Shown here: piece after piece, positions 1 to 18,632 of the stretch
How positions within the stretch are numbered: position 1 is the first letter of the stretch
How the letters are laid out: every line of letters starts with the position of its first letter
Origin: an uncultured SAR116 cluster alpha proteobacterium
GTDB lineage: Bacteria > Pseudomonadota > Alphaproteobacteria > Puniceispirillales > Marisalimonadaceae
DNA: 45,635 nt
Direction of reading: 5' to 3'
Assembly: GCA_902592615.1 (NCBI GenBank)
Contig: CACJFI010000011.1
Coordinates: 1-45,635 of the forward strand
The notes under the pieces: model-generated
Seen by the model: the letters and a program-made list of their open reading frames with translations, nothing else
Databases searched by the model: none
Told to the model about the DNA's origin: nothing
Made by a program: the position numbers and the translations under genes

Positions 1-1224
1 TTTTTGTACAGCTATCTTTTGTTTTTATTAGGAAAATTTGAATACTCTGTAGATAACAATGAATTGAGAAAGATAATTAGCAAATGGTTTTTTATGTGTT
101 CTTTAACAGGAAGATATACAGGGTCACCAGAGTCAGTTTTAGAAGCAGATATTAGAAGATTAGATATGGGTGAAAAAAAACCTAGCTGGTTTGTAGAATA
201 TCTTGATTCACTCATTTCCTCACAATTTATACCAGAATTTTGGGAAATTACACTTCCTCAAAAGTTTGATAACTCAGGTGGCTACAGTCCATATCTCTTT
301 GGTTACCATGCTGCACTGAATCTTTTGGGTGCTACCGCTTTATTTTCTGGTGTGAAAATATCAGAGATTTTGGATCCTGCCGTATCTAGTAGAAGATCTT
401 TAATTGAAAGACATCACTTATTTCCAAAATCATATTTAAGAAGTGTTGGTATTAATGGCATTTATAGCATAAACCAGATTGCAAATTATGCATTTTTAGA
501 ATGGGATGATAACAACAAAATTTCTGATAAGCCACCGTCTCAGTATTTTCCACAATACTTTTCAAAATTAAGCGAAAATGAACGCAAAATGGCAAATTAT
601 TGGCATGCTCTTCCAGATAATTGGGAGAACATGGAATATTGGAAATTTATAAAAGAAAGACGCAGGTTAATCAGTTTGGTTATTAAAGATAGTTTTAAAG
701 TTTTAAATAAAGAAAAAGAACCACTTGTAACATATGAAAGCTTGGGACCATCAGTTTCAGAGTTATTAAAGAGTATGGAAACATCTCAAATTGAATTTAA
801 ATCTTCGGCTAGAGTTTCATTTAAAGACGATATTCCTGAAAAAGTTGTAAATGAAAGCGTAATCAAAACAATAGCTGCTTTTATGAATTCCGATGGAGGC
901 ACCCTGGCTATAGGTATATCTGATGATGGTGATATTTTAGGTTTAGAACAAGATCTAAACTATAAAAATCAAGATTTAGATCAATATCAAAATTGGCTTT
1001 CTACGCTTATGATGAATAGAATTGGTAAAAGTGTTATTGCAAATTTAGTGCAGATAAGATTTGAAACTTTAGGTGATAAACTAGTTTGCCTTGTGGATGT
1101 AAAAAAATCAAATAAACCTGTTTTCGCCAACAATTCATCAGGAGATGAAACTTTTTACGTAAGAGTAGGTAACTCAACGAGAATTCTTAAAGGGCGTGAA
1201 ATTACAGATTATACAGACAAATAG
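1..1224 (+). CDS. GmrSD-like (DUF262/DUF1524) protein fused to a Schlafen AlbA_2 domain, 5' partial
   Basis: The reading frame is open from the first base, so the N-terminus, presumably the DUF262 (GmrS-like ParB/NTPase) part, lies off the window; a TTG at 4 is only a possible start. Numbering from that codon, residues 1-130 resemble the helical part that follows DUF262. Residues 135-180 look like the DUF1524 HNH-type nuclease core (ERHHLFPK at 135-142, then N157, N161 and NNKISDK). Residues 262-400 look like an AlbA_2 (Schlafen-type) domain, with EFKSS at 264, FMNSDGG at 293, GISDDG at 304 and FYVRVGNST at 384. GmrSD proteins are type IV restriction enzymes against modified phage DNA; AlbA_2 domains occur in regulators and nucleases, some of them in defence. 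A defence role is inferred from family and island location. It ends before a small gene at 1289. Confidence 0.75.
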   Translation, partial: FLYSYLLFLLGKFEYSVDNNELRKIISKWFFMCSLTGRYTGSPESVLEADIRRLDMGEKKPSWFVEYLDSLISSQFIPEFWEITLPQKFDNSGGYSPYLFGYHAALNLLGATALFSGVKISEILDPAVSSRRSLIERHHLFPKSYLRSVGINGIYSINQIANYAFLEWDDNNKISDKPPSQYFPQYFSKLSENERKMANYWHALPDNWENMEYWKFIKERRRLISLVIKDSFKVLNKEKEPLVTYESLGPSVSELLKSMETSQIEFKSSARVSFKDDIPEKVVNESVIKTIAAFMNSDGGTLAIGISDDGDILGLEQDLNYKNQDLDQYQNWLSTLMMNRIGKSVIANLVQIRFETLGDKLVCLVDVKKSNKPVFANNSSGDETFYVRVGNSTRILKGREITDYTDK

Positions 1225-1471: not shown

Positions 1472-1602
1472 AAAAAATAAAAAAAGAAAAATTAATTGTA
1501 CACATTTTGTACTCACTTTTTCGAGGGAATCGGTGGGAACTCTGTAGCCGTATTTCCTTGAATACCTACCTCTTTACACGCCACGCATAGGTTTTTTACG
1601 AA
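1472..1602 (+). other. Non-coding island end with direct repeats and a hairpin
   Basis: No gene is seen here. The stretch holds two direct copies of a TGTACNCA word (1497-1504 and 1508-1515, 11-base period), which could be arm-type integrase sites. It also holds a possible stem of GGGAATCGG (1525-1533) with CCG-T-ATTTCC (1548-1557), with one bulged base. It is richer in GC than its surroundings and stops exactly where the tRNA-Asp fragment begins. The functional reading as an attachment-site flank is inference. Confidence 0.35.
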
Positions 1603-1647
1603 CTGTCACGCCGGAGGTCGCGAGTTCGAGTCTCGTCACTCTCGCCA
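1603..1647 (+). other. 3' fragment of tRNA-Asp (putative attR site)
   Basis: From the anticodon loop onward this matches tRNA-Asp: loop CTGTCAC with anticodon GTC at 1605-1607, the 3' anticodon stem GCCGG, variable loop AGGTC, T-stem GCGAG, T-loop TTCGAGT, closing CTCGT, acceptor strand CACTCTC, discriminator G and an encoded CCA. The 5' half is absent: ACGAA precedes the loop where CCGGC would be needed, and no GAGAGTG-like 5' acceptor strand lies upstream. The 45-base length and abrupt left edge are typical of the displaced tRNA 3' end left by site-specific integration. It cannot make a functional tRNA. Confidence 0.85.
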
Positions 1648-1688: not shown

Positions 1689-2696
1689 TTAATATGATTT
1701 GTTCTTTATAAAATAGTCCATTCTGTCTACTGACTTAACATTAAATTTAACTTTTTTTTTATCTCTAATTATTTCAAGTTGTATATTAACTCCTATATCT
1801 CCTGAATTCCAAATTGACATATAAAAATTTTTTACACTACTTATATAATTTCCATTAACTGCATTTATTATATCATTCTTTCTTATGCCAGATATATCTG
1901 AAGGTCCGCCTTTACTTACTTTAGTGACAATAACTTTACCAGAAGAATCATTAGTTGAAATTCCTAAATATGGTTTCATACCTGATTGTGGACGACCATA
2001 TTTTAAAAGATCATTTAAAATTGGTTTTAGGAGGTTTATTGGAACAAACATATTTCCAGGTGTTATAGTACCGGGGGAGGCTGCGTCAGCAACAAAAAGT
2101 GAGCCTATACCTAATATTTCCCCTTTAGAATTAACAAGAGGAGCTCCAGCCCAAGATTGATTCATTGGTAGTGTATAAATTGGTTTTTCCAAGAAATATT
2201 CCCACCAACCTACAAAAGGTCTTCTTGAAACCATTTTAGCAATTGATCCTATTCCTCTATTAGGTGAGGGAAGAATTAACAAAACATCATCTAATTCTAT
2301 TTTATCTGAATTACCAAATTTTAGCGGAATTAAATTGGCTTTAATTATAGGTGAAACTATTCCAAATCCTGATGAGTGGTCATATCCAGTCAATCTACCA
2401 GGTATTTTTTTCCCATTAGGCAGTCCTATTTTTATGTCGCTTGCTTCAATAACGATGTAACCGATAGTGAGAATATTATTTTGGTCAATTATGACACCGC
2501 TCCCTTGACGAACTGTGCCAAGACTTTTTGATGTTCTTGCGTCATCAGGAACCATTGTATCAATACTTACTACTCCATTATAAAAATTTTGAATTTTATC
2601 TTTTGTTAAAGATGATTGATCCGCACATACAATTGAAGATGCAAAAAATAATGATATAAAAAAATATTTTTGACAAATACGAAATATATACACCAA
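1689..2696 (-). CDS. Exported HtrA-like PDZ protein with a degenerate protease site
   Basis: This 335-residue protein has an N-terminal signal peptide (hydrophobic 11-24, likely cut after VCA), a trypsin-like S1C fold (about 40-230) and one PDZ domain (about 240-325, starting at PYLGIS). The fold anchors are plain: GSGVIID at 66-71 and a GAPLVNSKGEILGIGSL strand pair. All three catalytic positions of DegP/DegS differ, however: the TNNHVV histidine is Tyr80, the aspartate of SDIAL is Gly110, and the serine of GNSGG is Ala183. It should therefore bind, not cut, unfolded or tagged periplasmic proteins; this is inference from residue loss. It is the first chromosomal gene after the island scar and is divergent from the VOC gene. 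Confidence 0.85.
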   Translation of the reverse strand: MVYIFRICQKYFFISLFFASSIVCADQSSLTKDKIQNFYNGVVSIDTMVPDDARTSKSLGTVRQGSGVIIDQNNILTIGYIVIEASDIKIGLPNGKKIPGRLTGYDHSSGFGIVSPIIKANLIPLKFGNSDKIELDDVLLILPSPNRGIGSIAKMVSRRPFVGWWEYFLEKPIYTLPMNQSWAGAPLVNSKGEILGIGSLFVADAASPGTITPGNMFVPINLLKPILNDLLKYGRPQSGMKPYLGISTNDSSGKVIVTKVSKGGPSDISGIRKNDIINAVNGNYISSVKNFYMSIWNSGDIGVNIQLEIIRDKKKVKFNVKSVDRMDYFIKNKSY

Positions 2697-18125: not shown

Positions 18126-18632
18126 ATGAAAAATTGGCAAAATAGACTTTATAAAACTCTAAAAAATGACGGAATTAAAATATTTAGCTATGTCCCTGAT
18201 GCTGGACATAAGATATTAATAGAAAATGCAACAAAAGATAATTCAGTCATTGCAATTCCTCTCACATCAGAAGAAGAGGGCGTAGGCATCGCTGCTGGTT
18301 CTTATCTAGGAGGATCTAAAGCTGTTTTGTTAATGCAAAGTAGTGGTGTTGGAAATTGTATTAATCAATTATCATTAATTAAACATGGTCAATTTCCTTT
18401 TTTTACTATTATAACAATGAGAGGTGAATTTGGTGAAGGAAATCCTTGGCAATTTGCAATGGGTGAAGCAGTAATACCAACATTAAATTCAATGGGAGTA
18501 AATTGTATTAAAATTGAAAAAGAAGAAGATGTTGAAAGTACAATAAAAGCTGCTTTGAGAATGGTATTTAAGTCAGAGAGATCTGTTGCTGTTTTACTTT
18601 CACAGAAATTAATCGGGGCTAAGATATTTTAG
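18126..18632 (+). CDS. comD: Sulfopyruvate (or phosphonopyruvate) decarboxylase, alpha subunit
   Basis: A 168-residue protein matching the pyrimidine-binding half of a thiamine diphosphate decarboxylase. The cofactor-activating glutamate is in PLTSEEEGVGIAAG (Glu50 or Glu51), and the GGSKAVLLMQSSGVGN block is typical of ComD. ComDE decarboxylates 3-sulfopyruvate to sulfoacetaldehyde, in coenzyme M synthesis in methanogens and in sulfonate breakdown in bacteria. A split phosphonopyruvate decarboxylase is the alternative. The beta subunit starts 15 bases later. Confidence 0.78.
   Translation: MKNWQNRLYKTLKNDGIKIFSYVPDAGHKILIENATKDNSVIAIPLTSEEEGVGIAAGSYLGGSKAVLLMQSSGVGNCINQLSLIKHGQFPFFTIITMRGEFGEGNPWQFAMGEAVIPTLNSMGVNCIKIEKEEDVESTIKAALRMVFKSERSVAVLLSQKLIGAKIF

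What the first reader, a model, noticed from the sequence alone, without database searches (positions are those of the whole stretch)
1..1224. GmrSD-like nuclease module fused to a Schlafen AlbA_2 domain on the island
The protein joins a DUF1524 HNH-type nuclease part (type IV restriction of modified phage DNA) to an AlbA_2 domain normally seen in Schlafen-like regulators and nucleases. The island location suggests anti-phage defence, and the AlbA_2 part could be a sensor or a second effector. I am not aware of a characterised defence system with this exact architecture.
Basis: partly seen in the sequence, partly recalled or inferred. Interest (0 to 1): 0.7.

Follow-up and report, generated by a model that had tools for sequence, protein, structure and literature searches.

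The report
Defence gene in integrase-less phage-site island
The flagged gene is the second half of a likely three-part bacterial antivirus protein (DNA sensor, DNA cutter, Schlafen-type RNA cutter), and it sits in a tiny 3-kb island that has no integration enzyme but carries the attachment-site arms of a temperate phage family, so it may spread by borrowing that phage's integrase.

Summary
Observation confirmed. Window 1-1224 encodes the C-terminal 407 residues of a DUF262-DUF1524-AlbA_2 protein cut by the contig start. The missing N-terminus, a GmrSD_N domain (5.5e-34), lies at the end of contig C22 of the same genome; 67 residues (about 200 bp) fall between contigs. Eleven aligned fusions from proteobacteria, one actinobacterial MAG and haloarchaea keep the DGQQR, HxFP and Schlafen E-x4-E...D residues, so both nucleases look intact. 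One homologue lies inside a type I R-M operon.

The island is unexpected. The gene lies in a ~3-kb insertion in tRNA-Asp, bounded by a 45-bp repeat and shown by empty sites in congeners. It has no integrase. Its ends match the attP (right 90-97%, left 76-91%) of temperate phages seen in nine IMG/VR contigs, next to their tyrosine integrase. Three congeners carry similar mini-islands with other cargo: a DndB-like protein (two genomes) and a trypsin-like protease. Arm repeats mostly agree between left and right ends and, in the phages, track the integrase N-terminus.

Best reading: a dual-nuclease defence gene in an integrase-less cassette that uses a phage integrase in trans. Mobility and phage protection are untested. 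New variants of known kinds.

The parts
1..1224 (+). C-terminal 407 codons of the DUF262-DUF1524-AlbA_2 gene (its codons 1-283 are at C22:18530-19378; about 201 nt missing between the contigs)
298..705 (+). DUF1524 / GmrSD_C-like HNH nuclease region (approximate limits, residues 100-235)
   Evidence: PADLOC HEC-05 C-terminal end at residues 155-234; weak GmrSD_C in aligned relatives; alignment
412..429 (+). HHLFPK motif (residues 138-143) of the HNH site
   Evidence: H-x-F-P invariant in the aligned fusions
778..1188 (+). SLFN_AlbA_2 domain (residues 260-396); catalytic-type E260 (778-780), E265 (793-795), D308 (922-924)
   Evidence: Pfam 3.5e-19; alignment; SLFN13 E205/E210/D248 (PMC5862951)
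1289..1471 (+). 60-aa ORF of unknown function between the fusion gene and the right end
   Evidence: no family match
1493..1602 (+). right end of the element, homologous to the phage attP arm
   Evidence: 157 bp incl. core 97.5% identical to phage contig L098
1497..1504 (+). arm-type repeat TGTACACA
   Evidence: same repeat at C22:18332-18339 and 18343-18350
1508..1515 (+). arm-type repeat TGTACTCA (one base off TGTACACA)
1603..1647 (+). attR core: 45-bp copy of the 3' end of tRNA-Asp; the intact tRNA-Asp(GTC) is at C22:18186-18262

Best explanation
The finding is the cargo gene of a ~3-kb integrase-less integrative element in tRNA-Asp. The cargo is a single protein of about 757 residues: DUF262 (GmrSD_N, NTP-dependent recognition of foreign or modified DNA), DUF1524 (HNH-type DNase) and a C-terminal Schlafen AlbA_2 domain with the catalytic residues of a tRNA/rRNA endoribonuclease. 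Most likely mechanism: the DUF262-DUF1524 part recognises and cuts incoming phage DNA, and the AlbA_2 part is a second, RNase effector, probably cutting tRNA, that stops growth when the DNA part is engaged or fails. The element moves with the integrase of a temperate phage family: it keeps the core and both arms of their attP, so infection or lysogeny by such a phage could excise and insert it in trans. Shown here: architecture, conserved residues, element borders, empty sites, attP homology, no integrase in the sequenced part, arm agreement. Inferred: recognition of modified DNA, RNase activity, abortive infection, mobilisation in trans.
For: Domains. N-terminal half on C22. Invariant DGQQR, HxFP, E-x4-EFK and D in the aligned fusions, matching SLFN13 E205/E210/D248. 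AlbA_2 swapped onto other N-termini. Type I R-M neighbours. Element: 45-bp repeat and tRNA-Asp, empty sites. Ends homologous to phage attP beside an integrase. Further mini-elements with other cargo at the same tRNA. Arm repeats co-vary with the integrase N-terminus. Cargo more alike than flanks between G005 and G006.
Against: No activity data. Adjacency of the two contigs and the ~201-nt gap are inferred. No helper integrase in 58 family genomes. No cargo relative in IMG/VR. One own right-arm repeat is off by one base. Only 4 mini-elements with 3 cargo types. Outer ends of G005 and G006 are more divergent than the cargo. Structure prediction failed.
Confidence: 0.6

Rival explanations
1. Prophage remnant: a temperate phage carrying the cargo integrated at tRNA-Asp and later lost everything except the cargo and its two ends; the element is now a fixed relic.
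For: Ends are phage-derived; no integrase in any family genome; the own second right-arm repeat and G006's right core have decayed.
Against: Three cargo types with the same two ends and no phage gene at one site need repeated precise deletions; left and right arm repeats mostly still agree; the G005/G006 cargo moved after the hosts split. Origin by deletion and present mobility in trans are compatible.
Confidence: 0.25
2. RNase-only effector: the DUF262-DUF1524 part is a sensor and the AlbA_2 RNase is the only active nuclease, guarding a type I R-M system as PrrC does.
For: Position between HsdS and HsdR in G717; the same AlbA_2 type sits on unrelated N-termini.
Against: The HNH residues are invariant too; the own mini-element has no R-M genes in the sequenced part.
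Confidence: 0.2
3. Plain GmrSD-type DNA restriction in which AlbA_2 is only a nucleic-acid-binding or regulatory add-on.
For: DUF262-DUF1524 enzymes restrict DNA without AlbA_2 (family knowledge; HEC-05 models match).
Against: The E-x4-E...D residues of an active Schlafen RNase are invariant from haloarchaea to proteobacteria.
Confidence: 0.2

Closest known systems
GmrSD-family type IV restriction enzymes (GmrSD, BrxU, SspE; PADLOC HEC-05)
   Same: DUF262 with DGQQR (phmmer of P0001 to BrxU 7p9k 2.8e-10) and a DUF1524-type HNH part; HEC-05 model matches
   Different: Carries an extra C-terminal Schlafen AlbA_2 domain with catalytic residues; modified-DNA specificity unknown
Schlafen AlbA_2 endoribonucleases (SLFN11-14; bacterial Schlafens linked to defence)
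   Same: AlbA_2 domain, phmmer match to SLFN12, E-x4-E...D residues as in SLFN13
   Different: Single AlbA_2 copy fused to a DNA restriction module; RNase activity untested
Phage satellites (PICMI, PICI, P4-like, PLE, tycheposons, VEIMEs)
   Same: Small site-specific island, tRNA site, defence-type cargo, dependence on a phage
   Different: Known satellites are described as using their own integrase and excision factors (PMC10803314); here no integrase and the ends are those of the phage attP
Integrase-less att-flanked cargo (CALIN arrays; CIMEs, from general knowledge)
   Same: Cargo between recombination sites with the recombinase supplied in trans (CALIN: PMC11389934)
   Different: The helper here would be a temperate phage integrase, not an integron or an ICE

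Membership tests
GmrSD-family type IV restriction | DUF262 / GmrSD_N domain with DGQQR | tested here: met
   C22 half 5.5e-34; DGQQR invariant
GmrSD-family type IV restriction | DUF1524 / GmrSD_C HNH domain | tested here: inconclusive
   No Pfam match in the own protein; HEC-05 C-terminal match; sub-threshold GmrSD_C in relatives; HxFP...N conserved
GmrSD-family type IV restriction | Cleavage of modified phage DNA | not testable with these tools
   needs protein and phages
Schlafen AlbA_2 RNase | AlbA_2 domain | tested here: met
   Pfam 3.5e-19
Schlafen AlbA_2 RNase | E-E-D active-site residues | tested here: met
   E260, E265, D308 by alignment against SLFN13
Schlafen AlbA_2 RNase | tRNA/rRNA cleavage | not testable with these tools
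   needs protein
Phage satellite | Site-specific integration with direct repeats | tested here: met
   45-bp repeat and empty sites
Phage satellite | Own integrase/excision genes | tested here: not met
   None in the sequenced part of the element; the ~200-bp gap is too short for one
Phage satellite | Induced and packaged by a helper phage | not testable with these tools
   no cargo relative in IMG/VR, a weak test
Integrase-less cargo moved in trans | Both att arms of a helper retained, no recombinase gene | tested here: met
Integrase-less cargo moved in trans | Moved by a helper integrase | not testable with these tools
   Indirect only: arm/integrase co-variation, cargo transfer

The most novel reading that the evidence does not exclude
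A class of minimal (1.6-3 kb) defence cassettes that carry no mobility gene but keep the full attP (core plus both arms, matched in arm specificity) of a temperate phage family; they spread with the phage's own integrase, and their small cargo, here a GmrSD-Schlafen dual nuclease, defends the cell.
Probability: 0.45. Interest if true: 0.8.

Novelty: new variant of a known kind. Interest (0 to 1): 0.62.

Why it matters
If the fusion works as read, one polypeptide joins a type IV-like DNA restriction module to a Schlafen RNase effector, linking DNA restriction to tRNA-based abortive infection. If the element moves as read, defence genes can spread in about 3 kb with no mobility gene, on the integrase of a phage, whereas known satellites are described as using their own. 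The arm/integrase co-variation gives a testable rule for which phage moves which cassette, and the short attP-like ends are a simple signature for finding more of them.

Tried and rejected
tmRNA as insertion site: the first RNA search gave a weak tmRNA 3' match; the intact gene on C22 is tRNA-Asp. HPnc0260 matches are below the family's gathering score and were dropped. RNA structure in the right end: z -0.84, not better than shuffles. Structure prediction from an alignment of two gave pLDDT 41 and was not used. No relative of the phage integrase in 58 family genomes. Cargo relatives in IMG/VR: none. Arms in annotated phages: only the tRNA core matches. G035, G003 and G014 carry 80-82% right-end-like sequences, but G035's core is degenerate and G003/G014 have none, so they were not counted. 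The G032 insertion at the same tRNA shows no such right end and was not counted.

Full report
What is in the window. The frame 1-1224 is open at the contig start and encodes 407 residues. The window is the whole of contig C11 of an unnamed 1.72-Mb, 104-contig genome, estimated 84.6% complete. Pfam gives SLFN_AlbA_2 at residues 260-396 (3.5e-19) and no DUF1524 match; PADLOC gives the C-terminal end of HEC-05 at residues 155-234 (8.8e-7). The only relative found in genome contigs is a 764-residue protein (P0001, locus L002) on a contig labelled Actinomycetota, 51% identical, with GmrSD_N and SLFN_AlbA_2.

The missing half. A search of the own genome with P0001 found a second place, C22:18539-19378, at the very end of a 19,379-bp contig. 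It is the start of the same gene: ATG at 18530, 283 codons, GmrSD_N 5.5e-34. In the two closest full-length relatives (L002, L124) exactly 67 residues lie between the own halves, so about 201 nt are missing. The two contigs were not joined; their adjacency follows from the relatives (below).

Conserved residues. Eleven fusions (own as two halves, L002, G008, G438, G281, G717, G666, G695, Haloquadratum, S. meliloti, DL31) were aligned. DGQQR of DUF262, H-x-F-P of DUF1524, and in AlbA_2 the E-x4-E-F-K, GG and the D of G-(V/I)-x-D are the same in all. SLFN13 needs E205, E210 and D248 for RNase activity (PMC5862951). The fusion has E260 and E265 with the same spacing, and D308. phmmer links the domain to SLFN12 (8.3e-6), and the DUF262 part of P0001 to the structure 7p9k (2.8e-10), which I know as BrxU.

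Distribution and neighbours. In 385 genomes of the class 9 match at 1e-10, but apart from the own genome only G281 covers both DUF1524 and AlbA_2. In 398 genomes of the phylum 7 match at 1e-30, with fusions in G717, G666 and G695 besides the own one. Two congeners (G008, G009) and one family member (G438) hold divergent fusions elsewhere. In G717 the gene lies between HsdS and HsdR of a type I R-M operon, its stop overlapping the HsdR start. Type I R-M genes lie near the G008 gene (read from the sequences, not run against a library), and annotated type I R-M and an abortive-infection protein near the S. meliloti gene. The same AlbA_2 type sits on another N-terminus in G533 (59% identical) and in G185. 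Enrichment was not tested against a control.

The island. C22 carries an intact tRNA-Asp(GTC) at 18186-18262; the window carries a 45-bp copy of its 3' end at 1603-1647. In congeners G037, G021, G018 and G027 the C22 flank, tRNA-Asp and the sequence from C11:1603 on lie next to each other; G039 shows the same more divergently. G021 aligns over 6.3 kb of the left flank and 2.5 kb of the right. Of 40 genus genomes 31 hold the core; by the neighbouring genes 26 of these look empty, four carry a mini-element with arms, and G032 carries another insertion. The own element is about 3 kb: left end, fusion gene, a 60-aa ORF, right end. No integrase is in it.

Other mini-elements at the same site. G005 and G006 carry a 2.1-kb element with a DndB-family protein (PF14072 4.8e-22; PADLOC DndB 1.2e-8) and a 73-aa ORF. 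G036 carries a 1.6-kb element with a trypsin-like protease (PF13365 7.1e-31; PADLOC RT-Protease_XI 4.5e-23). Matches in a defence library show relation, not function.

The phage link. The right-end sequence occurs in 9 IMG/VR contigs of 5.8-34 kb. In eight it runs through the tRNA core into the left arm, a whole attP; L097 is held only up to the core. Beside attP lies a tyrosine integrase of 382 aa (PF00589 1.4e-22); L099 also has a repressor and an endolysin. The own right end is 97.5% identical to L098 over 157 bp, and 90-97% to the others; left ends are 76-91%. Nothing else is shared with the phage stretches held, which are only parts of those contigs. In annotated phage genomes only the tRNA core matches.

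Arm agreement. Each end has a pair of 8-bp repeats. Within an element or phage, left and right mostly carry the same version: TGTACACA (own, G005, L098, L099, L109, L110, L112), TGTAGACA (L100), TGTTTGCA (G036, L111), TGTTAACA (L113). Exceptions are TGTACTCA in the own right end, TGTGCACA in the left ends of G005 and G006, and TGTTAACA in G006's right end. The integrase N-terminus follows the repeat: NNRYGN, SHYYGN, SHAHGK and SVNYGN at residues 25-30. L098 and L100 integrases differ at 12 of 382 positions, 8 of them in residues 12-34; but L098 and L110, with the same repeat, also differ at 5 positions there, among 36 in all. This is what arm-type integrase sites would show. The number of phages is small and this is not proof of binding.

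Evidence of movement. Between G005 and G006 the DndB-like gene is 99.0% identical, against 95-97% for two neighbouring chromosomal genes; third positions differ at 12/505 against 39/393 (Fisher p 1.5e-6). One gene was used as the yardstick. The left ends differ more (83%), so the elements are mosaic. No helper integrase was found in 58 family genomes, and that search had no positive control.

Comparison with the known. DUF262-DUF1524 enzymes are known as GmrSD, BrxU and HEC-05; Schlafen RNases linked to defence are known (PMC12839542, which cites a preprint I could not read). A text search for AlbA_2 with DUF262 found no paper, which says little, as most journals are not held. PMC10803314 describes known satellites as using integrases and excision factors of their own; PMC11389934 describes integrase-less cassette arrays moved by integrons. 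The fusion and the cassette are therefore filed as new variants of known kinds. The phages' host, packaging of the element and all biochemical steps remain open.

Noticed in passing
window 1692-2696 (-): A serine-protease-like gene at the same tRNA-Asp locus, next to the element, is found in only 13 of 40 genus genomes at 1e-20 and next to the tRNA in only some of them; it may be an older insertion.
   Followed up: partly
L107 1607-5600 (G032): Another insertion at the same tRNA-Asp with no recognised arms, holding a 344-aa and a 773-aa (TPR-like) gene.
   Followed up: partly
L103 7238-7331 and L104 2981-3075: Right-end-like sequences (80-81%) without a tRNA core next to a 172-176-aa gene without Pfam match, in front of an RND-type transporter gene, in G003 and G014.
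   Followed up: partly
L102 2276-2451 (G035): A degenerate right end (82%) with a degenerate tRNA-Asp-like core.
   Followed up: partly
L111 892-2040: The integrase of the TGTTTGCA-class phage has an in-frame stop at codon 10: sequencing error, later start or a broken gene.
   Followed up: no
L078 2574-4725 and L101 3084-5229: The same cargo (99%) has more divergent outer ends (left 83%), so ends and cargo have different histories.
   Followed up: partly
L123 4513-6660 (G533): The same AlbA_2 domain type (59% identical) on an unrelated N-terminal part: the domain looks like a module that is swapped between proteins.
   Followed up: partly
L098-L100, L110, L111, L113 integrase residues 12-34: Changes in the integrase N-terminus go with the arm repeat sequence, a possible recognition code.
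   Followed up: partly
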